A stretch of 64,000 bases of DNA from Antedon bifida. Lineage: Eukaryota > Echinodermata > Crinoidea > Comatulida > Antedonidae. The position numbers were made by a program, and so were the translations under genes. The notes under the pieces are model-generated. The model was not told the DNA's origin. It saw only the letters and a program-made list of their open reading frames with translations, and searched no databases. The stretch is from assembly GCA_963402885.1 (NCBI GenBank), contig OY727103.1, forward strand, positions 10,690,085-10,754,084. Direction: 5' to 3'. Below, piece by piece: positions 3,780 to 50,873 of this stretch (positions are counted from its first letter, which is position 1; every line of letters begins with the position of its first letter).

Positions 3780-3795
3780 GGTGTAAAACGGTTTT

Positions 3796-5179: not shown

Positions 5180-5389
5180 AATGGTGTAAAACGGTTTTAA
5201 ATGTGATTTTAAGCACTTTGATATTTTTGTGTAACCAAGTTTCATCGAAATGCACAAAATGGTCTAAAACGTCTCCAAATGCGATTTGAAGCTATTTTAA
5301 GCACTTTGGTGGTTTTAAGTTAACAAGTTTTTTCGAAATGCTCAATATGGTCTAAAACGTCTTCAAATGGTATAATAAGCTTTTCTGTA

Positions 5390-23979: not shown

Positions 23980-24400
23980 GAAATGCTCATAATGGTCTAA
24001 AACGTTTCCAAATACGATATTAAGCTATTTTGTGAACTTTGATATTTTTGTGTGAAAAGTTTAACCGAAATGCTCAAAATGGTCTAAAACGGTTTCAAAT
24101 GCGATTTGAAGCTATTCTAAGCACTTTGGTGTTTTCATGTTAACAAGTTTTTTCGAAATGCTCAATATAGTCTAAAACGGTTTCAAATGTGATTTTAAGC
24201 ACTTTGATATTTTTTGTGAAAAGTTTTGTCGAAATGCTCATAATGGTCTAAAACGTTTCCAAATACGATATTAAGCTATTTTGTGAACTTTGATATTTTT
24301 GTGTGAAAAGTTTAACCGAAATGCTCAAAATGGTCTAAAACGGTTTCAAATGCGATTTGAAGCTATTCTAAGCACTTTGGTGTTTTCATGTTAACAAGTT
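23980..24400 (-). repeat. Short tandem repeat of about 251 bp
   Basis: A three-monomer segment is repeated: the chimeric junction GGTTTCAAATGCGATTTG occurs at 24091 and 24342 (offset 251). Each is preceded by AAAAGTTTAACCG instead of the usual AAAAGTTTTACCG. The second copy lacks one A in the GTGAAAAG run. One related unit lies near 14570-14600. Confidence 0.75.
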
Positions 24401-26127
24401 TTTTCGAAATGCTCAATATGGTCTAAAACGGTTTCAAATGTGATTTTAAGCACTTTTATATTTTTTGTGAAAAAGTTTTGTCGAAATGCTCAAAATGGTT
24501 TAAAACGTTTCCAAATACGATATTAAGCTATTTTGTGCACTTTGATATTTTTGTGTGAAAAGTTTTATCGAAATGCTCAAAATGGTGTAAAACGGTTTTA
24601 AATGTGATTTTAAGCACTTTGATATTTTTGTGTAACCAAGTTTCATCGAAATGCACAAAATGGTCTAAAACGTCTCCAAATGCGATTTGAAGCTATTTTA
24701 AGCAGTTTGGTGTTTTTATGTTAACAAGTTTTTTTGAAAAGCTCAATATGGTCTAAAACGTCTTCAAATGGTATAATAAGCTATTCTGTACACTTTGATG
24801 TTTTGTGTGAAAAAGTTTTGTCGAAATGCTCAAAATGGTTTAAATCGTTTCCAAATGTGATTTTAAGCACTTTGATATTTTTGTGTAACCAAGTTTCATC
24901 GAAATGCACAAAATGGTCTAAAACGTCTCCAAATGCGATTTGAAGCTATTCTAAGCACTTTGGTGTTTTCATGTTAACAAGTTTTTTCGAAATGCTCAAT
25001 ATGGTCTAAAACGGTTTCAAATGTGATTTTAAGCACTTTGATATTTTTTGTGAAAAAGTTTTGTCGAAATGCTCATAATGGTCTAAAACGTTTCCAAATA
25101 CGATATTAAGCTATTTTGTGAACTTTGATATTTTTGTGTGAAAAGTTTTACCGAAATGCTCAAAATGGTCTAAAACGGTTTCAAATGTGATTTTAAGCAC
25201 TTTGATATTTTTTGTGAAAAAGTTTTGTCGAAATGCTCAAAATGGTCTAAAACGTTTCCAAATACGATATTAAGCTATTTTGTGCACTTTCACATTTTTG
25301 TGTGAAAAGATTTATCGAAATGCTCAAATTGGTCTAAAACGGTTTCAAATGTGATTTTAAGCACTTTGATATTTTTGTGTAACCAAGTTTCATCGAAATG
25401 CACAAAATGGTCTAAAACGTCTCCAAATGCGATTTGAAGATATTTTAAGCACTTTGGTGTTTTTATGTTAACAAGTTTTTTCGAAATGCTCAATATGGTC
25501 TAAAACGGTTTCAAATGTGATTTTAAGCACTTTGATATTTTTTGTGAAAAAGTTTTGTCGAAATGCTCATAATGGTCTAAAACGTTTCCAAATACGATAT
25601 TAAGCTATTTTGTGAACTTTGATATTTTTGTGTGAAAAGTTTTACCGAAATGCTCAAAATGGTCTAAAACGGTTTCAAATGTGATTTTAAGCACTTTGAA
25701 ATTTTTTGTGAGAAAGTTTTGTCGAAATGATCATAATGGTCTAAAACGTTTCCAAATACGATATTAAGCTATTTTGTGCACTTTGCCATTTTTGTGTGAA
25801 AAGTTTTATCGAAATGCTCAAATTGGTCTAAAACGTTTCAAATGTGAAATTAAGCACTTTGATATTTTTGTGTTACCAAGTTTCATCGAAATGCACAAAA
25901 TGGTCTAAAACGTCTCCAAATGCGATTTGAAGCTATTTTAAGCACTTTGGTGTTTTTATGTTAACAAGTTTTTTTGAAAAGCTCAATATGGTCTAAAACG
26001 TCTTCAAATGGTATAATAAGCTATTCTGTACACTTTGATGTTTTGTGTGAAAAAGTTTTGTCGAAATGCTCAAAATGGTTTAAAACGTTTCCAAATGTGA
26101 TTTTAAGCACTTTGATATTTTTGTGTA

Positions 26128-28932
26128 ACCAAGTTTCATCGAAATGCACAAAATGGTCTAAAACGTCTCCAAATGCGATTTGAAGCTATTTTAAGCACTT
26201 TGGTGTTTTTATGTTAACAAGTTTTTTCGAAATGCTCAATATGGTCTAAAACGTCTTCAAATGGTATAATAAGCTTTTCTGTACACTTTGATATTTTTTG
26301 TGAAAAAGTTTTGTCGAAATGCTCATAATGGTCTAAAACGTTTCCAAATACGATATTAAGCTATTTTGTGAACTTTGATATTTTTGTGTGAACAGTTTTA
26401 CCGAAATGCTCAAAATGGTCTAAAACGGTTTCAAATGTGATTTTAAGCACTTTGATATTTTTTGTGAAAAAGTTTTGTCGAAATGATCATAATGGTCTAA
26501 AACGTTTCCAAATACGATATTAAGCTATTTTGTGAACTTTGATATTTTTGTGTGAAAAGTTTTACCGAAATGCTCAAAATGGTCTAAAACGGTTTCAAAT
26601 GTGATTTTAAGCACTTTGATATTTTTGTGTAACCAAGTCTCATCGAAATGCACAAAATCGTCTAAAACGTCTCCAAATGCGATTTGAAGCTATTCTAAGC
26701 ACTTTGGTGTTTTCATGTTAACAAGTTTTTTCGAAATGCTCAATATGGTCTAAAACGGTTTCAAATGTGATTTTAAGCACTTTGATATTTTTTGTGAACA
26801 AGTTTCATCGAAATGCACAAAATGGTCTAAAACGTCTCCAAATGCGATTTGAAGATATTTTAAGCACTTTGGTGTTTTTATGTTAACAAGTTTTTTCGAA
26901 ATGTTCAATATGGTCTAAAACGTCTTCAAATGCGATTTGAAGCTATTTTAAACACTTTGGTGTTTTTATGTTAACAAGTTTTTTCGAAATGCTCAATATG
27001 GTCTAAAACGTCTTCAAATGGTATAATAAGCTATTCTGTACACTTTGATGTTTTGTGTGAACAAGTTTTGTCGAAATGCTCAAAATGGTTTAAAACGTTT
27101 CCAAATGTGATTTTAAGCACTTTGATATTTTTGTGTAACCAAGTTTCATCGAAATGCACAAAATGGTCTAAAACGTCTCCAAATGCGATTTGAAGCTATT
27201 CTAAGCACTTTGGTGTTTTCATGTTAACAAGTTTTTTCGAAATGCTCAATATGGTCTAAAACGGTTTCAAATGTGATTTTAAGCACTTTGATATTTTTTG
27301 TGAACAAGTTTCATCGAAATGCACAAAATGGTCTAAAACGTCTCCAAATGCGATTTGAAGATATTTTAAGCACTTTGGTGTTTTTATGTTAACAAGTTTT
27401 TTCGAAATGCTCAATATGGTCTAAAACGTCTTCAAATGGTATATTAAGCTATTCTGTACACTTTGATATTTTTTGTGAAAAAGTTTTGTCGAAATGCTCA
27501 AAATGGTTTAAAACGTTTCCAAATGTAATTTTAAGCACTTTGATATTTTTGTGTAACCAAGTCTCATCGAAATGCACAAAATGGTCTAAAACGTCTCCAA
27601 ATGCGATTTGAAGCTATTTTAATCAGTTTGGTGTTTTTATGTTAACAAGTTTTTTTGAAAAGCTCAATATGGTCTAAAACGTCTTCAAATGGTATAATAA
27701 GCTATTCTGTACACTTTGATGTTTTGTGTGAAAAAGTTTTGTCGAAATGCTCAAAATGGTTTAAATCGTTTCCAAATGTGATTTTAAGCACTTTGATATT
27801 TTTGTGTAACCAAGTTTCATCGAAATGCACAAAATGGTCTAAAACGTCTCCAAATGCGATTTGACGCTATTCTAAGCACTTTGGTGTTTTCATGTTAACA
27901 AGTTTTTTCGAAATGCTCAATATGGTCTAAAACGGTTTCAAATGTGATTTAAAGCACTTTGATATTTTTTGTGAAAAAGTTTTTTGGAAATGCTCATAAT
28001 GGTCTAAAACGTTTCCAAATACGATATTAAGCTATTTTGTGAACTTTGATATTTTTGTGTGAAAAGTTTTACCGAAATGCTCAAAATGGTCTAAAACGTT
28101 TCCAAATACGATATTAAGCTATTTTGTGCACTTTGACATTTTTGTGTGAAAAGTTTTATCGAAATGCTCAAATTGGTCTAAAACGGTTTCAAATGTGATT
28201 CTAAGCACTTTGATATTTTTGTGTAACCAAGTTTCATCGAAAAGCACAAAATGGTCTAAAACGTCTTCAAATGCGATTTGAAGCTATTCTAAGCACTTTG
28301 GTGTTTTCATGTTAACAAGTTTTTTCGAAATGCTCAATATGGTCTAAAACGGTTTCAAATGTGATTTTAAGCACTTTGATATTTTTTGTGAAAAAGTTTT
28401 GTCGAAATGCTCATAATGATCTAAAACGTTTCCAAATACGATATTAAGCTATTTTGTGAACTTTGATATTTTTGTGCTTAAATGGTCTAAAACGTTTCCA
28501 AATACGATATTAAGCTATTTTGTGCACTTTGATATTTTTGTGTGAAAAGTTTTATCGAAATGCTCAAAATGGTCTAAAACAGCAAATGCTGGATGGATCA
28601 CCCTCATTAAATATGGTTAAAATAAAATAAAATAAAGAAATGTGATATTAAGCTATTTTGTGCACTTTGATATTTTTGTGTGAAAAGTTTTATCGAAATG
28701 CACAAAATGGTCTAAAACGTCTCCAAATGCGATTTGAAGCTATTTTAAGAACTTTGGTGTTTTTTGTGAAAAAGTTTTGTCGAAATGCTCAAAATGGTCT
28801 AAAACGTTTCCAAATACGATATTAAGCTATTTTGTGCACTTTGACATTTTTGTGTGAAAAGTTTTATCGAAATGCTCAAATTGGTCTAAAACGTTTCAAA
28901 TGTGAAATTAAGCACTTTGATATTTTTGTGTT
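26128..28932 (-). repeat. 2805-bp tandem duplication, copy 1
   Basis: First of two adjacent copies; markers at 26221, 27655 and 27858 recur 2805 bp later at 29026, 30460 and 30663. The unit includes the 56-nt foreign segment, and beyond it the spacing to copy 2 falls to 2754. I saw about ten single-base differences between the copies, for example near 26395, 26905, 27062 and 28200, which is roughly 99.6% identity by eye. Confidence 0.88.
28581..28636. mobile_element. 56-nt non-satellite insert, origin unknown
   Basis: This is the only segment in the window unrelated to the satellite. It begins AGCAAATGCTGGATGG, contains ATCACCCTCATTAAATATGG and ends in an A-rich tail with AAAAT pentamers. 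Five bases (GGTTT) expected from the related copies near 4184, 8431, 21598 and 31387 are missing at the site, so the net gain is 51 bp. No target-site duplication or terminal inverted repeat is visible. The tail would suit a fragment of the 3' end of a retroposon (SINE- or LINE-like), but filler DNA captured during break repair fits the 5-bp loss equally well. The 'mobile element' label is tentative; that the segment is foreign is secure. Confidence 0.6.
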
Positions 28933-31686
28933 ACCAAGTTTCATCGAAATGCACAAAATGGTCTAAAACGTCTCCAAATGCGATTTGAAGCTATTTTAAG
29001 CACTTTAGTGTTTTTATGTTAACAAGTTTTTTCGAAATGCTCAATATGGTCTAAAACGTCTTCAAATGGTATAATAAGCTTTTCTGTACACTTTGATATT
29101 TTTTGTGAAAAAGTTTTGTCGAAATGCTCATAATGGTCTAAAACGTTTCCAAATACGATATTAAGCTATTTTGTGAACTTTGATATTTTTGTGTGAAAAG
29201 TTTTACCGAAATGCTCAAAATGGTCTAAAACGGTTTCAAATGTGATTTTAAGCACTTTGATATTTTTTGTGAAAAAGTTTTGTCGAAATGATCATAATGG
29301 TCTAAAACGTTTCCAAATACGATATTAAGCTATTTTGTGAACTTTGATATTTTTGTGTGAAAAGTTTTACCGAAATGCTCAAAATGGTCTAAAACGGTTT
29401 CAAATGTGATTTTAAGCACTTTGATATTTTTGTGTAACCAAGTCTCATCGAAATGCACAAAATCGTCTAAAACGTCTCCAAATGCGATTTGAAGCTATTC
29501 TAAGCACTTTGGTGTTTTCATGTTAACAAGTTTTTTCGAAATGCTCAATATGGTCTAAAACGGTTTCAAATGTGATTTTAAGCACTTTGATATTTTTTGT
29601 GAACAAGTTTCATCGAAATGCACAAAATGGTCTAAAACGTCTCCAAATGCGATTTGAAGATATTTTAAGCACTTTGGTGTTTTTATGTTAACAAGTTTTT
29701 TCGAAATGCTCAATATGGTCTAAAACGTCTTCAAATGCGATTTGAAGCTATTTTAAACACTTTGGTGTTTTTATGTTAACAAGTTTTTTCGAAATGCTCA
29801 ATATGGTCTAAAACGTCTTCAAATGGTATAATAAGCTATTCTGTACACTTTGATGTTTTGTGTGAAAAAGTTTTGTCGAAATGCTCAAAATGGTTTAAAA
29901 CGTTTCCAAATGTGATTTTAAGCACTTTGATATTTGTGTGTAACCAAGTTTCATCGAAATGCACAAAATGGTCTAAAACGTCTCCAAATGCGATTTGAAG
30001 CTATTCTAAGCACTTTGGTGTTTTCATGTTAACAAGTTTTTTCGAAATGCTCAATATGGTCTAAAACTGTTTCAAATGTGATTTTAAGCACTTTGATATT
30101 TTTTGTGAACAAGTTTCATCGAAATGCACAAAATGGTCTAAAACGTCTCCAAATGCGATTTGAAGATATTTTAAGCACTTTGGTGTTTTTATGTTAACAA
30201 GTTTTTTCGAAATGCTCAATATGGTCTAAAACGTCTTCAAATGGTATATTAAGCTATTCTGTACACTTTGATATTTTTTGTGAAAAAGTTTTGTCGAAAT
30301 GCTCAAAATGGTTTAAAACGTTTCCAAATGTAATTTTAAGCACTTTGATATTTTTGTGTAACCAAGTCTCATCGAAATGCACAAAATGGTCTAAAACGTC
30401 TCCAAATGCGATTTGAAGCTATTTTAATCAGTTTGGTGTTTTTATGTTAACAAGTTTTTTTGAAAAGCTCAATATGGTCTAAAACGTCTTCAAATGGTAT
30501 AATAAGCTATTCTGTACACTTTGATGTTTTGTGTGAAAAAGTTTTGTCGAAATGCTCAAAATGGTTTAAATCGTTTCCAAATGTGATTTTAAGCACTTTG
30601 ATATTTTTGTGTAACCAAGTTTCATCGAAATGCACAAAATGGTCTAAAACGTCTCCAAATGCGATTTGACGCTATTCTAAGCACTTTGGTGTTTTCATGT
30701 TAACAAGTTTTTTCGAAATGCTCAATATGGTCTAAAACGGTTTCAAATGTGATTTAAAGCACTTTGATATTTTTTGTGAAAAAGTTTTTTGGAAATGCTC
30801 ATAATGGTCTAAAACGTTTCCAAATACGATATTAAGCTATTTTGTGAACTTTGATATTTTTGTGTGAAAAGTTTTACCGAAATGCTCAAAATGGTCTAAA
30901 ACGTTTCCAAATACGATATTAAGCTATTTTGTGCACTTTGACATTTTTGTGTGAAAAGTTTTATCGAAATGCTCAAATTAGTCTAAAACGGTTTCAAATG
31001 TGATTTTAAGCACTTTGATATTTTTGTGTAACCAAGTTTCATCGAAAAGCACAAAATGGTCTAAAACGTCTTCAAATGCGATTTGAAGCTATTCTAAGCA
31101 CTTTGGTGTTTTCATGTTAACAAGTTTTTTCGAAATGCTCAATATGGTCTAAAACGGTTTCAAATGTGATTTTAAGCACTTTGATATTTTTTGTGAAAAA
31201 GTTTTGTCGAAATGCTCATAATGATCTAAAACGTTTCCAAATACGATATTAAGCTATTTTGTGAACTTTGATATTTTTGTGCTTAAATGGTCTAAAACGT
31301 TTCCAAATACGATATTAAGCTATTTTGTGCACTTTGATATTTTTGTGTGAAAAGTTTTATCGAAATGCTCAAAATGGTCTAAAACGGTTTGAAATGTGAT
31401 ATTAAGCTATTTTGTGCACTTTGATATTTTTGTGTGAAAAGTTTTATCGAAATGCACAAAATGGTCTAAAACGTCTCCAAATGCGATTTGAAGCTATTTT
31501 AAGAACTTTGGTGTTTTTTGTGAAAAAGTTTTGTCGAAATGCTCAAAATGGTCTAAAACGTTTCCAAATACGATATTAAGCTATTTTGTGCACTTTGACA
31601 TTTTTGTGTGAAAAGTTTTATCGAAATATTCAAATTGGTCTAAAACGTTTCAAATGTGAAATTAAGCACTTTGATATTTTTGTGTT
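28933..31686 (-). repeat. 2805-bp tandem duplication, copy 2 (no insert)
   Basis: Second copy, 2754 bp long because it lacks the foreign segment. At the equivalent site (about 31387) it reads straight through ACGGTTTGAAATGTG. Like copy 1 it has CACAAAATGG and TTTTTTGTGAAAAAG in the monomers after this site, where the more distant copies near 4.3, 8.5 and 21.7 kb have CACAATATGG and TTTTTTGGGAAAAAG. The two copies are therefore sisters. Private changes lie near 29934, 30067, 30980 and 31627. Confidence 0.88.
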
Positions 31687-34600
31687 ACCAAGTTTCATCG
31701 AAATGCACAAAATGGTCTAAAACGTCTCCAAATGCGATTTGAAGCTATTTTAAGCACTTTGGTGTTTTTATGTTAACAAGTTTTTTTGAAAAGCTCAATA
31801 TGGTCTAAAACGTCTTCAAATGGTATAATAAGCTATTCTGTACACTTTGATGTTTTGTGTGAAGAAGTTTTGTCGAAATGCTCAAAATGGTTTAAAACGT
31901 TTCCAAATGTGATTTTAAGCACTTTGATATTTTTGTGTAACAAAGTTTCATCGAAATGCACAAAATGGTCTAAAACGTCTCCAAATGCGAATTGATGCTA
32001 TTCTAAGCACTTTGGTGTTTTCATGTTAACAAGTTTTTTCGAAATGCTCAATATGGTCTAAAACGGTTTCAAATGTGATTTTAAGCACTTTGATATTTTT
32101 TGTGAAAAAGTTTTGTCGAAATGCTCATAATGGTCTAAAACGTTTCCAAATACGATATTAAGCTAATTTGTGAACTTTGATATTTTTGTGTGAAAAGTTT
32201 TACCGAAATGCTCAAAATGGTCTAAAACGGTTTCAAATGTGATTTTAAGCACTTTGATATTTTTTGTGAAAAAGTTTTATCGAAATGCTCAAAATGGTTT
32301 AAAACGTTTCCAAATACGATATTAAGCTATTTTGTGCACTTTGATATTTTTGTGTGAAAAGTTTTATCGAAATGCTCAAAATGGTGTAAAACGGTTTTAA
32401 ATGTGATTTTAAGCACTTTGATATTTTTGTGTAACCAAGTTTCATCGAAATGCACAAAATGGTCTAAAACGTCTCCAAATGCGATTTGAAGCTATTTTAA
32501 GCACTTTGGTGTTTTTATGTTAACAAGTTTTTTCGAAATGCTCAATATGGTCTAAAACGTCTTCAAATGGTATAATAAGCTTTTCTGTACACTTTGATAT
32601 TTTTTGTGAAAAAGTTTTGTCGAAATGCTCATAATGGTCTAAAACGTTTCCAAATACGATATTAAGCTATTTTGTGAACTTTGATATTTTTGTGTGAAAA
32701 GTTTAACCGAAATGCTCAAAATGGTCTAAAACGGTTTCAAATGTGATTTTAAGCACTTTGATATTTTTTGTGAAAAAGTTTTGTCGAAATGCTCATAATG
32801 GTCTAAAACGTTTCCAAATATGATATTAAGCTATTTTGTGAACTTTGATATTTTTGTGTGAAAAGTTTTACCGAAATGCTCAAAATGGTCTAAAACGGTT
32901 TCAAATGTGATTTTAAGCACTTTGATATTTTTGTGTAACCAAGTCTCATCGAAATGCACAAAATCGTCTAAAACGTCTCCAAATGCGATTTGAAGCTATT
33001 CTAAGCACTTTGGTGTTTTCATGTTAACAAGTTTTTTCGAAATGCTCAATATGGTCTAAAACGGTTTCAAATGTGATTTTAAGCACTTTGATATTTTTTG
33101 TGAACAAGTTTCATCGAAATGCACAAAATGGTCTAAAACGTCTCCAAAAACGATTTGAAGATATTTTAAGCACTTTGGTGTTTTTATGTTAACAAGTTTT
33201 TTCGAAATTCTCATTATGGTCTAAAACGTCTTCAAATGGTATAATAAGCTATTCTGTACACTTTGATATTTTTTGTGAAAAAGTTTTGTCGAAATGCTCA
33301 AAATGGTTTAAAACGTTTCCAAATGTAATTTTAAGCACTTTGATATTTTTGTATAACCAAGTCTCATCGAAATGCACAAAATGGTCTAAAACGTCTCCAA
33401 ATGCGATTTGAAGCTATTTTAAGCAGTTTGGTGTTTTTATGTTAACAAGTTTTTTTGAAAAGCTCAATATGGTCTAAAACGTCTTCAAATGGTATAATAA
33501 GCTATTCTGTACACTTTGATGTTTTGTGTGAAAAAGTTTTGTCGAAATGCTCAAAATGGTTTAAATCGTTTCCAAATGTGATTTTAAGCACTTTGATATT
33601 TTTGTGTAACCAAGTTTCATCGAAATGCACAAAATGGTCTAAAACGTCTCCAAATGCGATTTGAAGCTATTCTAAGCACTTTGGTGTTTTCATGTTAACA
33701 AGTTTTTTCGAAATGCTCAATATGGTCTAAAACAGTTTCAAATATGATTTTAAGCACTTTGATATTTTTTGTGAAAAAGTTTTGTCGAAATGCTCATAAT
33801 AACGTTTCCAAATACGATATTAAGCTATTTTGTGAACTTTGATATTTTTGTGTGAAAAGTTTTACCGAAATGCTCAAAATGGTCTAAAACGGTTTCAAAT
33901 GTGATTTTAAGCACTTTGATATTTTTTGTGAAAAAGTTTTGTCGAAATGCTCAAAATGGTCTAAAACGTTTCCAAATACGATATTAAGCTATTTTGTGCA
34001 CTTTCACATTTTTGTGTGAAAAGATTTATCGAAATGCTCAAATTGGTCTAAAACGGTTTCAAATGTGATTTTAAGCACTTTGATATTTTTGTGTAACCAA
34101 GTTTCATCGAAATGCACAAAATGGTCTAAAACGTCTCCAAATGCGATTTGAAGATATTTTAAGCACTTTGGTGTTTTTATGTTAACAAGTTTTTTCGAAA
34201 TGCTCAATATGGTCTAAAACGTCTTCAAATGGTATAATAAGCTATTCTGTACACTTTGATGTTTTGTGTGAAAAAGTTTTGTCGAAATGCTCATAATGGT
34301 CTAAAACGTTTCCAAATACGATATTAAGCTATTTTGTGAACTTTGATATTTTTGTGTGAAAAGTTTTACCGAAATGCTCAAAATGGTCTAAAACGGTTTC
34401 AAATGTGATTTTAAGCACTTTGATATTTTTTGTGAAAAAGTTTTGTCGAAATGATCATAATGGTCTAAAACGTTTCCAAATACGATATTAAGCTATTTTG
34501 TGAACTTTGATATTTTTGTGTGAAAAGTTTTACCGAAATGCTCAAAATGGTCTAAAACGGTTTCAAATGTGATTTTAAGCACTTTGATATTTTTGTGTAA

Positions 34601-35939
34601 CCAAGTCTCATCGAAATGCACAAAATCGTCTAAAACGTCTCCAAATGCGATTTGAAGCTATTCTAAGCACTTTGGTGTTTTCATGTTAACAAGTTTTTTC
34701 GAAATGCTCAATATGGTCTAAAACGGTTTCAAATGTGATTTTAAGCACTTTGATATTTTTTGTGAACAAGTTTCATCGAAATGCACAAAATGGTCTAAAA
34801 CGTCTCCAAATGCGATTTGAAGATATTTTAAGCACTTTGGTGTTTTTATGTTAACAAGTTTTTTCGAAATGCTCAATATGGTCTAAAACGTCTTCAAATG
34901 GTATATTAAGCTATTCTGTACACTTTGATATTTTTTGTGAAAAAGTTTTGGCGAAATGCTCAAAATGGTTTAAAACGTTTCCAAATGTAATTTTAAGCAC
35001 TTTGATATTTTTGTGTAACCAAGTCTCATCGAAATGCACAAAATGGTCTAAAACGTCTCCAAATGCGATTTGAAGCTATTTTAATCAGTTTGGTGTTTTT
35101 ATGTTAACAAGTTTTTTTGAAAAGCTCAATATGGTCTAAAACGTCTTCAAATGGTATAATAAGCTATTCTGTACACTTTGATGTTTTGTGTGAAAAAGTT
35201 TTGTCGAAATGCTCAAAATGGTTTAAAACGTTTCCAAATGTGATTTTAAGCACTTTGATATTTTTGTGTAACCAAGTTTCATCGAAATGCACAAAATGGT
35301 CTAAAACGTCTCCAAATGCGATTTGAAGCTATTCTAAGCACTTTGGTGTTTTCATGTTAACAAGTTTTTTCGAAATGCTCAATATGGTCTAAAACGGTTT
35401 CAAATGTTATTTTAAGCACTTTGATATTTTTTGTGAAAAAGTTTTGTCGAAATGCTCAAAATGGTCTAAAACGTTTCCAAATACGATATTAAGCTATTTT
35501 GTGCACTTTGACATTTTTGTGTGAAAAGTTTTATCGAAATGCTCAAATTGGTCTAAAACGGTTTCAAATGTGAATTTAAGCACTTTGATATTTTTGTGTA
35601 ACCAAGTTTCATCGAAATGCACAAAATGGTCTAAAACGTCACCAAATGCGATTTGAAGATATTTTAAGCACTTTGGTGTTTTTATGTTAACAAGTTTTTT
35701 CGAAATGCTCAAAATGGTCTAAAACGGTTTCAAATGTGATTTTAAGCACTTTGATATTTTTTGTGAAAAAGTTTTGTCGAAATGCACAAAATGGTCTAAA
35801 ACGTTTCCAAATACGATATTAAGCTATTTTGTGCACTTTGACATATTTGTGTGAAAAGTTTTATCGAAATGTTCAAATTGGTCTAAAACGGTTTCAAATG
35901 TGATTTTAAGGACTTTGATATTTTTGTGTAACCAAATTA
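31687..35939 (-). repeat. Right end of array A
   Basis: L/S monomers with TTGAAAAGCTCAAT markers at 31786, 33455 and 35117, spaced 1669 and 1662 bp, so roughly 1.66-kb higher-order units run up to the orientation switch. An 8-bp deletion unique to this copy removes GGTCTAAA near 33790, giving CATAATAACGTTTCC. Towards 35700-35939 the monomers carry more private changes (CACCAAATGC near 35641, TTAAGGACTTT near 35910, CCAAATTACATCG near 35933), as is often seen at array edges. No gene is present. Confidence 0.85.
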
Positions 35940-36037
35940 CATCGAAATGCACAAAATGGTCTAAAACGTCTCCAAATGCGATTTGAAGCTATTTTAAGCA
36001 TTTGGAGACGTTTTAGACCATTTTGTGCATTTCGATG
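35940..36037. other. Satellite orientation switch with inverted repeat
   Basis: This is the junction between arrays A and B. The left arm (35940-35979) and right arm (35998-36037) are perfect reverse complements over 40 bp, separated by an 18-nt spacer (35980-35997). An A-type L monomer runs up to TTTTAAGCA, and B-type sequence begins at GCATTTGGAGACG. The two share GCA at 35998-36000, a possible microhomology. Outside the arms the flanks diverge at once: the left is an S monomer and the right an L monomer. So this is a join of two different arrays, not the centre of a long palindrome. The sequence could form a hairpin or cruciform. An assembly misjoin cannot be excluded. Confidence 0.93.
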
Positions 36038-37903
36038 AAACTTTTCACACAAAAACAACAAAGTGCATACAATATCTTAATATCGTATTTGGAGACGTTT
36101 TAGACCACTTTGTGCATTTCGATGAAACTTTTCACACAAAAACATCAATGTGCATACAACAGCTTATTATCGTATTTGGAGACGTTTTTGACCATTTTGT
36201 GCATTTCGATGAAAATTTTCACACAAAACCATCAAAGTGCATAAAATATCTTCAAATCGCATTTGCAGACGTTTTAGACCATTTTGTGCATTTCGATGAA
36301 GCTTAGTTACACAAAAACATCAAAGTGCTTAAAATCACATTTGAACCCGTTTTAGACCATTTCGAGCATTTCTATAAAACTTTTGACACAAAACATCAAA
36401 ATGCACAAAAGAGCTCCAAATCGCATTTGGAGACGTTTTAGACCATTTCGAGCATTTCTATAAAACTTTTGACACAAAACATCAAAGTGCACAAAAGAGC
36501 TTCAAATCGCATTTGGAGACGTTTTAGACCATTTTGAGCATTTCGAAAAAACTTTTCACACAAAAACATCAATGTGCATACAACAGCTTATTATCGTATT
36601 TGGAGACGTTTTTGACCATTTTGTGCATTTCGATGAAACTTTTCACACAAAACCATCAAAGTGCATAAAATATCTTCAAATCGCATTTGGAGACGTTTTA
36701 GACCATTTTGTGCATTTCGAAAAAACGTGATTAAACAAAAATATCAAAGTGCCTTAAATCACATTTGAAACCGTTTTAGACCATTTTGAGCATTTCGATA
36801 AAACTTTTCACACAAAACATTAAAGTGCACAAAATAGCTTCAAATCGCATTTGGAGACGTTTTAGACCATTTTGTGCATTTCGAAAAACTTTTCACACAA
36901 AAACATCAAAGTGCATACAATAGCTTAATATCGTATTTGGAGACGTTTTAGACCATTTTGTGCATTTCGATGAAACTTTTTACACAAAACATAAAAGTGC
37001 ACAAAATAGCTTCAAATCGCATTTGGAGACGTTTTAGACCATTTTGTGCATTTCGATGAAATTTTCACACAAAAACAACAAAGTGCACAAAATAGCTTCA
37101 AATCGCATTTGCAGACGTTTTAGACCATTTTGTGCATTTCGATGAAACTTAGTTACACAAAAACATCAAAGTGCTTAAAATCACATTTGAAACCGTTTTA
37201 GACCATTTCGAGCATTTCTATAAAACTTTTGACACAAAACATCAAAGTGCACAAAAGAGCTCCAAATCGCATTTGTAGACGTTTTAGACCATTTTGAGCA
37301 TTTCGAAAAAACTTTTCATTCAAAAACATCAAAGTGCATACAATAGCTTAATATAGTATTTGGAGACGTTTTAGACCATTTTGTGCATTTCGATGAAACT
37401 TTTCACACAAAACATCAAAGTGCACAAAATAGCTTCAAATCGCATTTGCAGGCGTTTTAGACATTTTGTGCATTTCGATGAAACTTAGTTACACAAAAAC
37501 ATCAAAGTGCTTAAAATCACATTTGAAACCGTTTTAGACCATTTCGGGCATTTCTATAAAACTTTTGACACAAAACATCGAAGTGCACAAAAGAGCTCCA
37601 AGTCGCATTTGGAGACGTTTTAGACCATTTTGAGCATTTCGAAAAAACTTTTCACACAAAACCATCAAAGTGCATAAAATATCTTCAAATCGCATTTGGA
37701 GACGTTTTAGACCATTTTGTGAATTTCGAAAAAACGTGATTAAACAAAAATATCAAAGAGCTCCAAATCGCATTTGTAGACGTTTTAGACCATTTTGAGC
37801 ATTTCGAAAAAACTTTTCATTCAAAAACATCAAAGTGCATACAATAGCTTAATATAGTATTTGGAGACGTTTTAGACCATTTTGTGCATTTCGATGAAAC
37901 TTT

Positions 37904-38249
37904 TCACACAAAACATCAAAGTGCACAAAATAGCTTCAAATCGCATTTGAAGACGTTTTAGAACATTTTGTGCATTTCGATGAAACTTTTCACACAAAAA
38001 CAACAAAGTGCATACAATAGCTTAATATCGTATTTGGAGACGTTTTAGACAATTTTGTGCATTTCGATGAAACTTTTCACACAAAACATCAAAGTGCACA
38101 AAATAGCTTCAAATCGCATTTGAAGACGTTTTAGAACATTTTGTGCATTTCGATGAAACTTTTCACACAAAAACAACAAAGTGCATACAATAGCTTAATA
38201 TCGTATTTGGAGACGTTTTAGACAATTTTGTGCATTTCGATGAAACTTT
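37904..38249 (+). repeat. Tandem 173-bp dimer duplication
   Basis: Two adjacent copies of a two-monomer unit; TTTGAAGACG occurs at 37946 and 38119, followed in both by TTAGAACATTTTG and later TTAGACAATTTTG. The related block near 42.2 kb has the unit only once, which shifts the offset between the blocks from 4240 to 4067. The duplication therefore arose after those blocks separated, or was lost in the other. Confidence 0.85.
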
Positions 38250-38321
38250 TCACACAAAACAACAAAGTGCACAAAATAGCTTCAAATCGCATTTGGAGAC
38301 GTTTTAGACCATTTTGTGCGT

Positions 38322-38345
38322 TTCATTACACAGAACATCAAAGTG
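38322..38345 (+). repeat. Truncated monomer GCGTTTCATTACAC (type copy)
   Basis: TTGTGCGTTTCATTACACAG lacks about 10 bp of the usual CGATGAAACTTTTCACAC segment and has GCGTTT instead of GCATTT. Copies with the same junction are near 40017, 41206, 42384, 45192, 59006 and 59687. Shared sequence shows a single origin followed by spread with block duplications. Confidence 0.85.
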
Positions 38346-39390
38346 CACAAAATAGCTTCAAATCGCATTTGGAGACGTTTTAAACCATTTTGTGCATTTC
38401 GAAAAAACTTGATTACACAAAAATATCAAAGTGCTTAAAATCACATTTAAAACCGTTTTAGACCATTTTAAGCATTTCGATAAAACTTTTCACACAAAAC
38501 ATTAAAGTGCACAAAATAGCTTCAAATCGCATTTGGAGACGTTTTAGACCATTTTGTGCATTTCGATGAAACTTGGTTACACAAAAACATCAAGGTGCAC
38601 AAAAGAGTTCCAAATCGCATTTGGAGACGTTTTTGACCATTTTGTGCATTTCGAAAAAACTTTTCACACAAAAACATCAAAGTGCATACAATAGCTTAAT
38701 ATCGTATTTGGAGACGTTTTAGACCATTTTGTGCATTTCGATGAAACTTTTCACACAAAACATAAAAGTGCCTAAAATAGCTTCAAATCGCATTTGGAGA
38801 CGTTTTAGACCATTTTGTGCATTTCGATGAAACTTTTCACACAAAAACAACAAAGTGCATACAATAGCTTAATATCGTATTTGGAGACGTTTTAGACCAT
38901 ATTGTGCATTTCGATGAAACTTTTCACACAAAAACATCAATGTGCATACAACAGCTTATTATGGTATTTGGAGACGTTTTTGACCATTTTGTGCATTTCG
39001 AAAAAACTTTTCACACAAAAACATCAAAGTGCATACAATAGCTTAATATCGTATTTGGAGACGTTTTTGACCATTTTGTGCATTTCGATGAAACTTTTCA
39101 CACAAAACCATCAAAGTGAATAAAATAGCTTCAAATCGCATTTGCAGACGTTTTAGACCATTTTGTGCATTTCGATGAAACTTAGTTACACAAAAACATC
39201 AAAGTGCTTAAAATCACATTTGAAACCGTTTTAGACCATTTCGAGCATTTCTATAAAACTTTTGACACAAAACTTCAAAGTGCACAAAAGAACTCCAAAT
39301 CGCATTTGGAGACGTTTTAGACCATTTTGAGCATTTCGAAAAAACTTTTCACTCAAAAACATCAAAGTGCATACAATAGCTTAATATAGT

Positions 39391-41805
39391 ATTTGGAGAC
39401 GTTTTAGACCATTTTGTGCATTTCGATGAAACTTTACACACAAAACATCAAAGTGCACAAAATAGCTTCAAATCGCATTTGGAGACGTTTTAGACCATTT
39501 TGTGCATTTCGATGAAACTTGATTACACAAAAACATCAAAGTGCTTAAAATCACATTTGAAACCGTTTTAGAACATTTTGAGCATTTCGAAAAAACATGT
39601 TAACATAAAAACACCAAAGTGCTTAGAATAGCTTCAAAACGGATTTGGAGACGTTTTAGACCATTTTGTGCATTTCGTTAAAACTTTTCAAACAAAAACA
39701 TCAAAGTGCATACAATAGCTTAATATCGTATTTGGAGACGTTTTAGACCGTTTTGTGCATTTCGATGAAACTTTTTACACAAAACATCAAAGTGCACAAA
39801 ATAGCTTCAAGTCGCATTTGGAGACGTTTTAGACCATTTTGTGCATTTCGATGAAACTTTTCACACAAAAACAACAAAGTGCATACAATATCTTAATATC
39901 GTATTTGGAGACGTTTTAGACCACTTTGTGCATTTCGATGAAACTTTTCACACACAACATCAAAGTGCACAAAATAGCTTCAAATCGCATTTGGAGACGT
40001 TTTAGACCATTTTGTGCGTTTCATTACACAAAACATCAAAGTTCACAAAATAGCTTAATATCGCATTTGGAGACGTTTTAGACCATTTTGTGCATTTCGT
40101 TAAAACTTTTCAAACAAAACCATCAAAGTGCATAAAATATCTTCAAATCGCATTTGGAGACGTTTTAGACCATTTTGTGAATTTCGAAAAAACGTGATTA
40201 AACAAAAATATCAAAGTGCCTTAAATTACATTTGAAACCGTTTTAGACCATTTTGAGTATTTCGATAAAACTTTTCACACAAAACATTAAAGTGCACAAA
40301 ATAGCTTCAAATCGCATTTGGAGACGTTTTAGACCATTTTGTGCATATCGATGAAACTTGGTTACACAAAGACATCAAATTGCACAAAAGAGTTCCAAAT
40401 CGCATTTGGAGACGTTTTAGACCATTTTATGCATTTCGAAAAACTTTTCACACAAAAACATCAAAGTGCATACAATAGCTTAATATCGTATTTGGAGACG
40501 TTTTAGACCATTTTGTGCATTTCGATGGAACTTTTTACACAAAACATAAAAGTGCACAAAATAGCTTCAAATCGCATTTGGAGACGTTTTAGACCATTTT
40601 GTGCATTTCGATGAAACTTTACACACAAAACATCAAAGTGCACAAAATAGCTTCAAATCGCATTTGGAGACGTTTTAGACCATTTTGTGCATTTCGATGA
40701 AACTTGATTACACAAAAACATCAAAGTGCTTAAAATCACATTTGAAACCGTTTTAGAACATTTTGAGCATTTCGAAAAAACATGTTAACATAAAAACACC
40801 AAAGTGCTTAGAATAGCTTCAAAACGGATTTGGAGACGTTTTAGACCATTTTGTGCATTTCGTTAAAACTTTTCAAACAAAAACATCAAAGTGCATACAA
40901 TAGCTTAATATCGTATTTGGAGACGTTTTAGACCGTTTTGTGCATTTCGATGAAACTTTTTACACAAAACATCAAAGTGCACAAAATAGCTTCAAGTCGC
41001 ATTTGGAGACGTTTTAGACCATTTTGTGCATTTCGATGAAACTTTTCACACAAAAACAACAAAGTGCATACAATATCTTAATATCGTATTTGGAGACGTT
41101 TTAGACCACTTTGTGCATTTCGATGAAACTTTTCACACACAACATCAAAGTGCACAAAATAGCTTCAAATCGCATTTGGAGACGTTTTAGACCATTTTGT
41201 GCGTTTCATTACACAAAACATCAAAGTTCACAAAATAGCTTAATATCGCATTTGGAGACGTTTTAGACCATTTTGTGCATTTCGTTAAAACTTTTCAAAC
41301 AAAACCATCAAAGTGCATAAAATATCTTCAAATCGCATTTGGAGACGTTTTAGACCATTTTGTGAATTTCGAAAAAACGTGATTAAACAAAAATATCAAA
41401 GTGCCTTAAATTACATTTGAAACCGTTTTAGACCATTTTGAGTATTTCGATAAAACTTTTCACACAAAACATTAAAGTGCACAAAATAGCTTCAAATCGC
41501 ATTTGGAGACGTTTTAGACCATTTTGTGCATATCGATGAAACTTGGTTACACAAAGACATCAAATTGCACAAAAGAGTTCCAAATCGCATTTGGAGACGT
41601 TTTAGACCATTTTATGCATTTCGAAAAACTTTTCACACAAAAACATCAAAGTGCATACAATAGCTTAATATCGTATTTGGAGACGTTTTAGACCATTTTG
41701 TGCATTTCGATGGAACTTTTTACACAAAACATAAAAGTGCACAAAATAGCTTCAAATCGCATTTGGAGACGTTTTAGACCATTTTGTGCATTTCGATGAA
41801 ACTTT
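39391..41805 (+). repeat. Tandem 1185-bp duplication
   Basis: Unit 39391-40575 is followed directly by a second copy at 40576-41760, and the match runs on to 41805. Every rare variant compared is present in both at offset 1185: ACTTTACACAC (39431/40616), the GTTAAC monomer (39599/40784), CTTCAAGTCGC, GCATATCGATG, ACAAAGACATC and GATGGAAC. I saw no difference. A partial third copy lies at 43561-44596 (offset 4579). The near-identity points to a very recent event or a duplicated assembly path. Confidence 0.9.
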
Positions 41806-41997
41806 TCACACAAAAACAACAAAGTGCATACAATATCTTCAAATCGCATTTGCAGACGTTTTAGACCATTTTGTGCATTTCGATGAAACTTAGTTACACA
41901 AAAACATCAAAGTGCTTAAAATCACATTTGAAACCGTTTTAGACCATTTCGAGCATTTCTATAAAACTTTTGACACAAAACATCAAAGTGCACAAAA

Positions 41998-43064
41998 GAG
42001 CTCCAAATCGCATTTGTAGACGTTTTAGACCATTTTGAGCATTTCGAAAAAACTTTTCATTCAAAAACATCAAAGTGCATACAATAGCTTAATATAGTAT
42101 TTGGAGACGTTTTAGACCATTTTGTGCATTTCGATGAAACTTTTCACACAAAACATCAAAGTGCACAAAATAGCTTCAAATCGCATTTGAAGACGTTTTA
42201 GAACATTTTGTGCATTTCGATGAAACTTTTCACACAAAAACAACAAAGTGCATACAATAGCTTAATATCGTATTTGGAGACGTTTTAGACAATTTTGTGC
42301 ATTTCGATGAAACTTTTCACACAAAACAACAAAGTGCACAAAATAGCTTCAAATCGCATTTGGAGACGTTTTAGACCATTTTGTGCGTTTCATTACACAG
42401 AACATTAAAGTGCACAAAATAGCTTCAAATCGCATTTGGAGACGTTTTAAACCATTTTGTGCATTTCGAAAAAACTTGATTACACAAAAATATCAAAGTG
42501 CTTAAAATCACATTTAAAACCGTTTTAGACCATTTTAAGCATTTCGATAAAACTTTTCACACAAAACATTAAAGTGCACAAAATAGCTTCAAATCGCATT
42601 TGGAGACGTTTTAGACCATTTTGTGCATTTCGATGAAACTTGGTTACACAAAAACATCAAGGTGCACAAAAGAGTTCCAAATCGCATTTGGAGACGTTTT
42701 AGACCATTTTGTGCATTTCGAAAAAACTTTTCACACAAAAACATCAAAGTGCATACAATAGCTTAATATCGTATTTGGAGACGTTTTAGACCATTTTGTG
42801 CATTTCGATGAAACTTTTCACACAAAACATAAAAGTGCCTAAAATAGCTTCAAATCGCATTTGGAGACGTTTTAGACCATTTTGTGCATTTCGATGAAAC
42901 TTTTCACACAAAAACAACAAAGTGCATACAATAGCTTAATATCGTATTTGGAGACGTTTTAGACCATATTGTGCATTTCGATGAAACTTTTCACACAAAA
43001 ACATCAATGTGCATACAACAGCTTATTATGGTATTTGGAGACGTTTTTGACCATTTTGTGCATT
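41998..43064 (+). repeat. 1.07-kb block matching 37758-39000
   Basis: Second copy of the block, with a single version of the 173-bp dimer. It has small differences such as ACAGAACATTAAAG (ACAGAACATCAAAG in the other copy). After about 43065 the sequence changes to a different monomer order, and the next shared segment resumes at 43561 with offset 4579. Confidence 0.8.
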
Positions 43065-43560
43065 TCGATAAAACTTTTCACACAAAAACATCAAAGTGCA
43101 TAAAATATCTTCAAATCGCATTTGAAGACGTTTTAGACCATTTTGTGCATTTCGATGAAACTTAGTTACACAAAAACATCAAAGTGCTTAAAATCACATT
43201 TGAAACCGTTTTAGACCATTTCGAGCATTTCTATAAAACTTTTGACACAAAACATCAAAGTGCACAAAAGAGCTCCAAATCGCATTGGGAGACGTTTTAG
43301 ACCATTTTGAGCATTTCGAAAAAACTTTTCACTCAAAAACATCAAAGTGCATACAATAGCTTAATATAGTATTTGGAGACGTTTTAGACCATTTTGTGCA
43401 TTTCGATGAAACTTTTCACACAAAACATCAAAGTGCACAAAATAGCTTCAAATCGCATTTGGAGACGTTTTAGACCATTTTGTGCATTTCGATGAAACTT
43501 GGTTACACAAAAACATCAAAGTGCACAAAAGAGTTCCAAATCGCATTTGGAGACGTTTTA

Positions 43561-44596
43561 GACCATTTTGTGCATTTCGAAAAAACTTTTCACACAAAAA
43601 CATCAAAGTGCATACAATAGCTTAATATCGTATTTGGAGACGTTTTTGACCATATTGTGCATTTCGATGAAACTTTTCACACAAAACCATCAAAGTGAAT
43701 AAAATAGCTTCAAATCGCATTTGCAGACGTTTTAGACCATTTTGTGCATTTCGATGAAACTTAGTTACACAAAAACATCAAAGTGCTTAAAATCACATTT
43801 GAAACCGTTTTAGACCATTTCGAGCATTTCTATAAAACTTTTGACACAAAACTTCAAAGTGCACAAAAGAACTCCAAATCGCATTTGGAGACGTTTTAGA
43901 CCATTTTGAGCATTTCGAAAAAACTTTTCACTCAAAAACATCAAAGTGCATACAATAGCTTAATATAGTATTTGGAGACGTTTTAGACCATTTTGTGCAT
44001 TTCGATGAAACTTTACACACAAAACATCAAAGTGCACAAAATAGCTTCAAATCGCATTTGGAGACGTTTTAGACCATTTTGTGCATTTCGATGAAACTTG
44101 ATTACACAAAAACATCAAAGTGCTTAAAATCACATTTGAAACCGTTTTAGAACATTTTGAGCATTTCGAAAAAACATGTTAACATAAAAACACCAAAGTG
44201 CTTAGAATAGCTTCAAAACGGATTTGGAGACGTTTTAGACCATTTTGTGCATTTCGTTAAAACTTTTCAAACAAAAACATCAAAGTGCATACAATAGCTT
44301 AATATCGTATTTGGAGACGTTTTAGACCGTTTTGTGCATTTCGATGAAACTTTTTACACAAAACATCAAAGTGCACAAAATAGCTTCAAGTCGCATTTGG
44401 AGACGTTTTAGACCATTTTGTGCATTTCGATGAAACTTTTCACACAAAAACAACAAAGTGCATACAATATCTTAATATCGTATTTGGAGACGTTTTAGAC
44501 CACTTTGTGCATTTCGATGAAACTTGTCACACACAACATCAAAGTGCACAAAATAGCTTCAAATCGCATTTGGAGACGTTTTAGACCATTTTGTGC
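43561..44596 (+). repeat. Dispersed copy of 38982-40017
   Basis: It matches 38982-40017 at offset 4579, including CCATCAAAGTGAATAAAATAG, ACTTTACACAC (44010) and the GTTAAC monomer (44178). Small differences include CCATATTGTGC near 43650 and CTTGTCACAC near 44524. The match ends where the other copy enters the truncated GCGTTTCATTACAC monomer. Confidence 0.85.
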
Positions 44597-45503
44597 ATTT
44601 CGAAAAAACTTGATTACACAAAAATATCAAAGTGCTTAAAATCACATTTGAAACCGTTTTAGACCATTTTGAGCATTTCGATAAAACTTTTCACACAAAA
44701 CATTAAAGTGCACAAAATAGCTTCAAATCGCATTTGGAGACGTTTTAGACCATTTTGTGCATTTCGATGAAAATTGGTTACACAAAAACATCAAAGTGCA
44801 CAAAAGGGTTCCAAATCGCATTTGGAGACGTTTTAGACCATTTTGTGCATTTCGAAAAAACTTTTCACACAAAAACATCACAGTGCATACAATAGCTTAA
44901 TATCGTATTTGGAGACGTTTTAGACCATTTTTTGCATTTAGATGAAACTTTTCTCACAAAACATAAAAGTGCATAAAATAGCTTCAAATCGCATTTGGAG
45001 ACGTTTTAGACCATTTTGTGCATTTCGATGAAACTTTTCACACAAAAACATAAAAGTGCCTAAAATAGCTTCAAATCGTATTTGGAGACGTTTTAGACCA
45101 TTTTGTGCATTTCGATGAAACTTTTCACACAAAACAACAAAGTGCACAAAATAGCTTCAAATCGCATTTGGAGACGTTTTAGACCATTTTGTGCGTTTCA
45201 TTACACAAAACATTAAAGTGCACAAAATAGCTTCAAATCGCATTTAGAGACGTTTTAGACCATTTTATGCATTTCGATGAAACTTGGTTACACAAAAACA
45301 TCAAAGTGCACAAAAGAGTTCCAAATCGCATTTGGAGACGTTTTAGACCATTTTGTGCATTTCAAAAAAACTTTTAACACAAAAACATCAAAGTGCATAC
45401 AATATCGTATTTGGAGACGTTTTAGACCATTTTGTGCATTTCGATGAAACTTTTCACCCAAAACATAAAAGTGCACAAAATAGCTTCAAATCGCATTTGG
45501 AGA
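44566..45503 (+). repeat. 0.94-kb block matching 59058-59995
   Basis: Offset 14492: GATGAAAATTGG (44771/59263), TTTAGATGAAAC (44939/59431) and ATTTCAAAAAAAC (45359/59851) are shared. An internal monomer near 45040-45090 differs in several positions at once, as expected from local exchange between monomers. The match ends at the GACG/GACA difference at 45504/59996. Confidence 0.82.
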
Positions 45504-45555
45504 CGTTTTAGACCATTTTGTGCATTTCGATGAAACTTTTCACACAAAAACAACA

Positions 45556-46889
45556 AAGTGCATACAATAGCTTAATATCGTATTTGGAGACGTTTTAGAC
45601 CATTTTGTGCATCTCGATGAAACTTTTCACCCAAAACATAAAAGTGCATACAATAGCTTAATATCGTATTTGGAGACGTTTTAGACCATTTTGTGCATCT
45701 CGATGAAACTTTTCACCCAAAACATAAAAGTGCACAAAATAGCTTCAAATCGCATTTGGAGACATTTTTGACCAATTTGTGCATTTCGATGAAACTTTTT
45801 ACACAAAAACAACAAAGTGCATACAATAGCTTAATATCGTATTTGGAGACGTTTTAGACCATTTTGTGCATTTCGATGAAACTTTTCAAACAAAAACATC
45901 AATGTGCATACAACAGCTTATTATCGCATTTGGAGACGTTTTAGACCATTTTGTGCATTTCGAAAAAACTTTTCACACAAAAACATCAAAGTGCATACAA
46001 TAGCATAATATCGTATTTGGAGACGTTTTAGACCATTTTGTGCATTTTGATGAAACTTTTCACACAAAAACATCAATGTGCATACAACAGCTTATTATCG
46101 TATTTGGAGACGTTTTTGACCATTTTGTGCATTTCGATGAAACTTAGTTACACAAAAACATCAAAGTGCTTAAAATCACATTTGAAACCGTTTTAGACCA
46201 TTTCGAGCATTTCAATAAAACTTTTGACACAAAACATCAAAGTGCACAAAAGAGCTCCAAATCGCATTTGGAGACGTTTTAGACCATTTTGAGCATTTCG
46301 AAAAAACTTTTCACTCAAAAACATCAAAGTGCATACAATAGCTTAATATAGTATTTGGAGACGTTTTAGACCATTTTGTGCATTTCGATGAAACTTGGTT
46401 ACACAAAAACATCAAAGTGCACAAATGAGTTCCAAATCGCATTTGCAGACGTTTTAGACCATTTTGTGCTTTTCGATGAAACTTAGTTACACAAAAACAT
46501 CAAAGTGCTTAAAATCACATTTGAAACCGTTTTAGACCATTTCGAGCATTTCTATAAAACTTTTGACACAAAACATCAAAGTGCACAAAAGAGCTCCAAA
46601 TCGCATTTGGAGACGTTTTAGACCATTTTGAGCATTTCGAAAAAACTTTTCACTCAAAAACATCAAAGTGCATACAATAGCTTAATATAGTATTTGGAGA
46701 CGTTTTAGACCATTTTGTGCATTTCGATGAAACTTGGTTACACAAAAACATCAAAGTGCACAAAAGAGTTCCAAATCGCATTGGAGACGTTTTAGACCAT
46801 TTTGTGCATTTCGAAAAAACTTTTAACACAAAAACATCAAAGTGCATACAATAGCTTAATATCGTATTTGGAGACGTTTTAGACCATTT
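45556..46889 (+). repeat. 1.33-kb block matching 60830-62163
   Basis: Offset 15274: GCATCTCGATG (ATCTCG at 45611/60885), ATAGCATAATATCG (about 46001/61275) and the one-base-short CGCATTGGAGACG (about 46781/62055) are shared. Differences seen are few, for example CATTTCAATAAAAC versus CATTTCTATAAAAC (46209/61483) and AAATGAG versus AAAAGAG (46431/61705). Confidence 0.85.
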
Positions 46890-49404: not shown

Positions 49405-50269
49405 CACAAAAACATCAAAGTGCATACAATAGCTTAATATCGTATTTGGAGACGTTTTAGACCATTTTGTGCATTTCGATGAAACTTTTCACCCAAAACA
49501 TAAAAGTGCACAAAATAGCTTCAAATCGCATTTGGAGACATTTTTGACCATTTTGTGCATTTCGATGAAACTTTTTACACAAAAACAACAAAGTGCCTAC
49601 AATAGCTTAATATCGTATTTGGAGACGTTTTAGACAATTTTGTGCATTTCGATGAAACTTTTCAAACAAAAACATCAATGTGCATACAACAGCTTATTAT
49701 CGCATTTGGAGACGTTTTAGACCATTTTGTGCATTTCGAAAAAACTTTTCACACAAAAACATCAAAGTGCATACAATAGCTTAATATCGTATTTGGAGAC
49801 GTTTTAGACCATTTTGTGCATTTCGATGAAACTGTTCACACAAAAACAAAAAAGTGCATACAATAGCTTAATATCGTATTTGGAGACGTTTTAGACCATT
49901 TTGTGCATTTCGATAAAACTTTTCACCCAAAACATAAAAGTGCACAAAATAGCTTCAAATCGCATTTGGAGACATTTTTGACCAATTTGTGCATTTCGAT
50001 GAAACTTTTTACACAAAAACAACAAAGTGCATACAATAGCTTAATATCGTATTTGGAGACGTTTTAGACCATTTTGTGCATTTCGATGAAAGTTTTCAAA
50101 CAAAAACATCAATGTGCATACAACAGCTTATTATCGCATTTGGAGACGTTTTAGACCATTTTGTGCATTTCGAAAAAACTTTTCACACAAAAACATCAAA
50201 GTGCATACAATAGCTTAATATCGTATTTGGAGACGTTTTAGACCATTTTGTGCATTTCGATGAAACTTT

Positions 50270-50790: not shown

Positions 50791-50873
50791 CAAACAAAAA
50801 CATCAATGTGCATACAACAGCTTATTATCGCATTTGGAGACGTTTTAGACCATTTTGTGCATTTCGAAAAAAC

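What the first reader, a model, noticed from the sequence alone, without database searches (positions are those of the whole stretch)
35940..36037. Sharp inversion of satellite orientation with a 40-bp perfect inverted repeat
All monomers left of 36000 point one way and all to the right the other way. The breakpoint lies inside a monomer with GCA microhomology, and the arms 35940-35979 and 35998-36037 are perfectly complementary around 18 nt. Flanks differ in monomer type directly outside the arms, so this is a join of two diverged arrays rather than a simple foldback. Such switches mark inversions in centromeric arrays and can form cruciforms.
Basis: partly seen in the sequence, partly recalled or inferred. 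Interest (0 to 1): 0.7.

Follow-up and report, generated by a model that had tools for sequence, protein, structure and literature searches.

The report
Where two satellite arrays meet head-to-head
Two large blocks of a chromosome's tandem repeat, of the same family but evolved apart, meet here pointing in opposite directions; it is most likely a real and fairly old rearrangement scar of a known kind, one of several in this genome.

Summary
The window is C16:10690085-10754084 of a 315.6-Mb genome. Left array A is about 190 kb; right array B keeps subfamily and strand over 78 kb and in three probes out to 324 kb. A and fetched B share no word of 90 bases or more; a C12 sample is B-like, a C14 sample A-like. 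Monomers near the join carry more private changes than most array-internal stretches, as array edges do; a stricter control keeps this for A only. The arms are mostly the family's conserved box: about 9% of random A|B joints reach 40 bp, 0.6% with so short a spacer. Switches recur: 6 in the fetched C16 array, others on C10-C15, including a fold-back on C13 with arms of at least 188 bp. Best reading: a repair or replication scar with 3-bp microhomology joining two independently homogenised arrays. Ordinary in kind; no raw reads were available.

The parts
1..35997 (+). Array A: about 87-bp satellite (mostly 77/78/87/88-bp monomers), + orientation; on C16 it extends left of the window to about 10536.2 kb (about 190 kb in all, with three inserts and one short reversed patch)
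35545..35952 (+). Last five complete A monomers, each without an identical copy among 2125 A monomers
   Evidence: coordinates from the monomer lengths
35940..35979 (+). Left arm of the perfect inverted repeat (conserved box of the monomer)
35980..35997 (.). 18-nt spacer, A sequence
35998..36000 (.). GCA shared by the A continuation and the B sequence (junction microhomology)
35998..36037 (-). Right arm of the perfect inverted repeat; also normal B sequence
36025..38600 (-). About 30 junction-nearest B monomers, among the least homogenised of the fetched B array, although the nearest two do have identical copies (end coordinate approximate)
35998..64000 (-). Array B: same satellite family, different subfamily, - orientation; contiguous to C16:10804084 and same subfamily and strand in three 121-bp probes to C16:11050120

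Best explanation
A genuine breakpoint in a large, centromere-type satellite locus. Shown: two arrays of one family, each homogenised on its own, abut in opposite orientation with 3 bp of microhomology, and private changes are denser near the join than in most of either array (the B side depends on the control used). Inferred: a double-strand break or stalled fork inside array A was healed onto reverse-oriented satellite of the B subfamily (a subfamily also seen on C12), either by microhomology end joining or by a fold-back-primed template switch (3' GCA pairing with TGC 18 nt upstream, copying a few tens of bases, then moving into B). Because unequal exchange works between same-orientation copies (established knowledge), the flip then acted as a wall: A and B were homogenised separately and the monomers at the wall were renewed less. 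It probably has no dedicated function; it could act as a local hairpin former.
For: Exact geometry; the 760 anchors obey the switch and both-strand scans find none wrong-way; A and B monomers never identical across the join while 78% have an identical copy within their own array; class iii and class i monomers are closer to their counterparts across the join than to other classes, and the order class iii to class ii is enriched in both arrays, so they share an ancestor; last 5 A monomers all private (8 of 2121 windows as extreme) and B junction side at K=20 (4 of 890); the changes are mainly substitutions, 8 of 8 in A and 30 of 36 in B; further switches on C16, C15, C12 and C10, C11, C13, C14; fold-back with 18-nt spacer on C13; fold-back junctions in people carry 2-8 bp inverted microhomology (PMC3907307, passages).
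Against: No raw reads, so no spanning molecule is shown. With a local 150-monomer neighbourhood instead of the whole array the B-side signal is not significant (30 of 178 cuts at K=20) while the A side stays (8 of 282 at K=5). K was chosen after seeing the data; other K are weaker (A K=20: 118 of 2106; B K=3: 234 of 907). Substitutions also dominate in the rest of both arrays, and B's edge has relatively more indels (6 of 36 against 7 of 97), so the kind of change does not prove decay. Class ii is not closer across the join (0.152) than class i to ii within B (0.133), and the order i to iii is enriched in A but depleted in B. The mechanism cannot be read from a single junction.
Confidence: 0.75

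Rival explanations
1. Assembly misjoin of two array segments, for instance by scaffolding or patching without a gap.
For: Satellite arrays are prone to misassembly; no reads could be checked; B resembles a C12 array; the B-side edge signal fails the local control.
Against: A and fetched B share no word of 90 bases or more, so an overlap-based false join is hard to make; a missed-adapter or fold-back chimera would give long identical arms, not 40 bp then divergence; private changes are dense on both sides of the join in the whole-array test; B is not the sampled C12 sequence itself (best ungapped 400-bp placements 85-98%, longest exact word 276 bp).
Confidence: 0.15
2. Fold-back-primed template switch: A's 3' end GCA paired with TGC 18 nt upstream, copied 37 nt, then switched into array B. 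This makes the perfect arms by construction. (A sub-reading of the best explanation.)
For: 3-bp inverted microhomology exactly at the spacer edge; arms of 40 bp or more with a spacer of 18 or less in only 120 of 20000 random joints, and with A's end fixed in 4625 of 77923 B starts; a fold-back with 18-nt spacer on C13; same kind of junction in human inverted duplications.
Against: Needs two switches where one join suffices; the right arm is also ordinary B sequence (best B copies 98% over 200 bp from 35998, 21).
Confidence: 0.35
3. Direct microhomology-mediated end joining of an A end and a B end, as in a two-break inversion or an inter-array join. (A sub-reading of the best explanation.)
For: Single event; GCA overlap; both arms are ordinary for their arrays.
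Against: A perfect arm this long at so short a spacer arises in about 0.6% of random joints, although that threshold is post hoc.
Confidence: 0.4
4. Functional macro-dyad: opposed arrays kept by selection for hairpin or cruciform formation that helps centromere chromatin, as proposed for Tribolium.
For: Very large opposed arrays (about 190 kb and at least 78 kb contiguous); stable predicted stem; other junctions here occur in 3 or 4 copies.
Against: The stem is matched by 19 of 1000 random joints; the exact-box scan of the genome found no second copy of this junction; no chromatin data.
Confidence: 0.07

Closest known systems
Macro-dyad symmetries of major satellites in Tribolium madens, T. 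freemani and T. castaneum (PMC13081366; abstract, part 1 of section 7 and the Discussion read)
   Same: Long same-family subarrays abutting in opposite orientation, with a defined inversion site and a long predicted stem.
   Different: There two inversion-site types recur 2044 and 3486 times. Here this junction was found once and its two arrays are different subfamilies; copies of other junctions seen in this genome number 3 or 4.
Inversions in primate alpha-satellite arrays (PMC11062924; passages seen) and mosaic inversions in human beta- and HSat arrays (PMC9186530; passages seen)
   Same: Blocks of monomers re-oriented within one satellite locus.
Fold-back inverted duplications with a spacer and 2-8 bp inverted microhomology (PMC3907307; abstract and passages seen)
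   Same: Spacer bounded by inverted microhomology (3 bp), inverted arms.
   Different: Arms here are only 40 bp before divergence, and the spacer is 18 nt where most there are a few kb; no long identical inverted duplication.

Membership tests
Satellite macro-dyad (Tribolium type) | Two same-family subarrays in opposite orientation, directly adjacent | tested here: met
Satellite macro-dyad (Tribolium type) | Inversion site conserved and repeated many times | tested here: not met
   The exact-box genome scan would list exact copies and lists this junction once among ten places; one in the window at up to 3 mismatches. Copies with changed boxes would be missed; a search for the junction 25-mer did not complete.
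Fold-back inverted duplication | Spacer flanked by inverted microhomology of 2-8 bp | tested here: met
   TGC at 35977-35979 and GCA at 35998-36000
Fold-back inverted duplication | Long identical inverted arms | tested here: not met
   Perfect for 40 bp only; about 87% over aligned columns in the adjoining 0.5-3 kb, gaps aside
Centromeric satellite array inversion | Same satellite on many chromosomes | tested here: met
   9549 and 9558 box matches on the two strands; the capped listing shows C1, C10, C12, C14, C16 (38); further hits on C11, C13, C15. A large array was read only on C16.
Centromeric satellite array inversion | CENH3-bearing chromatin | not testable with these tools
   no chromatin data
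Centromeric satellite array inversion | Long reads span the breakpoint | not testable with these tools
   no reads held

The most novel reading that the evidence does not exclude
In this animal genome satellite arrays are repeatedly flipped by fold-back-primed template switching with loops of a few to about 20 nt, just downstream of the conserved monomer box. A flip lets an array capture a subfamily from another chromosome, walls off homogenisation, and some flip sites are then co-amplified with their array, giving macro-dyad satellites outside Tribolium.
Probability: 0.25. Interest if true: 0.6.

Novelty: new member of a known kind. Interest (0 to 1): 0.35.

Why it matters
If the flip is a wall to homogenisation, such junctions are natural markers that separate layers of satellite evolution, and many junctions in one genome would make the fold-back model testable from sequence alone. 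The Tribolium authors state that macro-dyads were documented only in that genus (PMC13081366, Discussion); this genome looks like a further case, although I made no dedicated search for others beyond. For a single junction the interest is modest.

Tried and rejected
Naming the satellite by literature: 13-mers (0 papers) and 12-mers (11 papers, unrelated by their titles; listing only). Plasmids and viral contigs gave no match. Paper searches on satellite inversions and cnidarian satellites were seen as listings; I then opened PMC13081366, PMC11062924, PMC3907307, PMC12222009 and PMC9186530 in part (PMC12222009 did not bear on the question). A plant origin, which I first assumed from recalled plant satellites, was dropped after transposon-like ORFs in the locus pointed to an animal (83-89). 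A whole-array self-BLAST timed out and was replaced by word and ungapped scans. Missed-adapter artefact rejected: the flanks diverge. 'B is C12 sequence misplaced' rejected for the sampled 4 kb only. Head-to-head breakpoints close behind CCAAATGC were seen in several junctions, but the pattern selects for it and the wider-gap and tail-to-tail searches did not complete, so this stays in the novel case only.

Full report
What is there. The window is satellite of about 87-bp monomers from end to end. One search placed 432 monomer anchors on one strand left of the join and 328 on the other strand right of it, searching only the expected strand on each side; both-strand searches found none wrong-way in the window. 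The arms 35940-35979 and 35998-36037 are perfectly complementary around 18 nt and extend neither outward nor inward. GC and AT skews flip sign at the same place.

Two arrays, not one. Of 758 complete monomers (291 distinct sequences) no A monomer is identical to a B monomer; the closest pair differs by 3.8%, while 78% of monomers have an identical copy within their own array. Fetched A with its left flank (236 kb) and 78 kb of B share no word of 90 bases or more; 80-base words are shared at 180 B positions there, and none inside the window. Across the arrays class iii monomers (mean distance 0.082) and class i monomers (0.120) are closer to their counterparts than to other classes; class ii is the exception (0.152 across, against 0.133 between classes i and ii within B) apart from four B-array monomers that lie 0.067 from the A class. 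The order class iii to class ii is enriched in both arrays (A 96 against 39.4 expected, B 27 against 12.3), but i to iii is enriched in A (105 against 51.9) and depleted in B (3 against 13.5) (21 A and 23 B monomers unclassified). So A and B most likely descend from one multi-class array and were reshaped and homogenised apart.

Genomic setting. The window is C16:10690085-10754084 of a 315.6-Mb genome in 27 contigs. The conserved box, at up to 3 mismatches, is found 9549 and 9558 times on the two strands genome-wide (places listed only in part). On C16 the satellite begins near 10522.7 kb with more diverged monomers of mixed orientation (mean 4.1-4.4 edits to the nearest window A monomer). Array A proper runs from about 10536.2 to 10726.08 kb with three inserts and one short reversed patch at 10543.5-10543.7 kb. 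B runs on without a further switch to the end of the contiguous fetched DNA at 10804.08 kb, and three 121-bp probes at 10850, 10950 and 11050 kb match fetched B at 100% on the same strand. Of five samples on other contigs scored by monomer (two on C15, two on C10, one on C12), only the C12 sample is B-like (43 of 43 monomers closer to B, mean 0.72 edits to B). By shared words a 401-bp C14 sample is A-like (29 words of 100 bases with A, none with B), and one C10 sample shares four 100-base words with B. The wider search for relatives of B did not complete.

Chance and artefact. For random A|B joints the median perfect arm is 16 bp or 20 bp (looser rule); arms of 40 bp or more occur in 7.4% of 1500 and 9.2% of 3000; with a spacer of 18 or less in 0.33%, 0.47% and 120 of 20000; with a spacer of 43 or less in 1.5% and 399 of 20000. 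Hairpin energy at least as low: 19 of 1000. These thresholds were set by the observation itself, so the mild unusualness must be discounted. Against a misjoin: with all fetched monomers (A 2125, B 909) the five junction-nearest A monomers are all private (8 of 2121 windows as extreme), and of the 20 junction-nearest B monomers 70% are private (4 of 890), although the two nearest B monomers are not, and other window sizes are weaker (A K=20: 118 of 2106; B K=3: 234 of 907). The differences are 8 substitutions of 8 in the last 12 A monomers and 30 of 36 in the last 30 B monomers; elsewhere they are 293 of 339 in A and 90 of 97 in B, so B's edge has if anything more indels. The older left end of A shows the same rise (0.64 private in its outermost 25 monomers, 0.28 in the next 100, about 0.1 in most of the interior). 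A stricter local control keeps the A-side signal (8 of 282) but not the B-side one (30 of 178).

Other switches. In the fetched satellite of C16 (10522.7-10804.1 kb) there are six switches, three head-to-head and three tail-to-tail, including this one; two of the tail-to-tail ones are, by eye, reverse-complement copies of the same junction. The C15 samples hold four, three of them the same head-to-head junction by eye, and the C12 sample two. An exact-box pattern with a gap of at most 61 found ten head-to-head places: C10 one, C11 two, C13 one, C14 four of identical matched sequence, C16 two. It misses junctions whose boxes carry mismatches, such as C15, and says nothing of wider gaps. On C13 the arms are perfect for at least 188 bp, limited by the 401 bases fetched, around an 18-nt spacer: a clean fold-back, unless it is itself a read artefact. 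Ours has arms of 40 bp, then divergence. In the same comparison of eight junctions, the other six showed arms of 19-62 bp at spacers of 2-120 nt.

Mechanism. Shown: 3 bp of microhomology that is also inverted microhomology at the spacer edge. Inferred: end joining (0.4) or fold-back-primed template switch (0.35); both are genuine-junction readings and together make up the 0.75 of the best explanation. The rest goes to misjoin (0.15), selected macro-dyad (0.07) and the unforeseen. Human fold-back junctions carry 2-8 bp inverted microhomology in 13 sequenced cases (PMC3907307). The Tribolium authors describe macro-dyads and call them exclusive to that genus so far (PMC13081366). Primate alpha-satellite inversions are known (PMC11062924), as are mosaic inversions in human beta- and HSat arrays (PMC9186530).

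Organism. Not named by any tool. ORFs in or beside the array match reverse transcriptase RVT_1 (6.7e-24) and the P2X7 C-terminal domain (3.4e-11). From recall this points to an animal, perhaps a cnidarian; that is a guess.

Noticed in passing
window 28588-28616 (inside a 138-bp monomer): A monomer of array A carries a non-satellite stretch of about 50 bp (GCTGGATGGATCACCCTCATTAAATATGG followed by AAAAT repeats), once in the window.
   Followed up: partly
L020 7341-9341 and L021 2820-5390 (C16 about 10606-10616 kb): Two inserts of about 4-5 kb in array A hold long ORFs: a 666-aa one without a Pfam match at 0.01, a 593-aa one with a sub-threshold MULE transposase match, and a P2RX7_C-like ORF.
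   Followed up: partly
C14:8217716, 8251916, 8256613, 8272285: Four places with the same 76-bp near-perfect palindromic head-to-head junction (43-bp arms, 2-nt centre in the one copy fetched), spread over 55 kb: a flip site apparently amplified with its array.
   Followed up: partly
C15:10831945, 10833531, 10864842: The same head-to-head junction (23-bp arms, 6-nt spacer) printed alike in three places.
   Followed up: partly
C13:6862280-6862680 (L040): Perfect inverted arms of at least 188 bp around 18 nt in satellite: young fold-back or read artefact.
   Followed up: partly
C12:16474742 to 16666933: Triplets of one box at 87-bp spacing recur six times in the capped listing; in the one place read they lie in a short inverted segment, suggesting an inverted micro-segment amplified within a higher-order repeat.
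   Followed up: no
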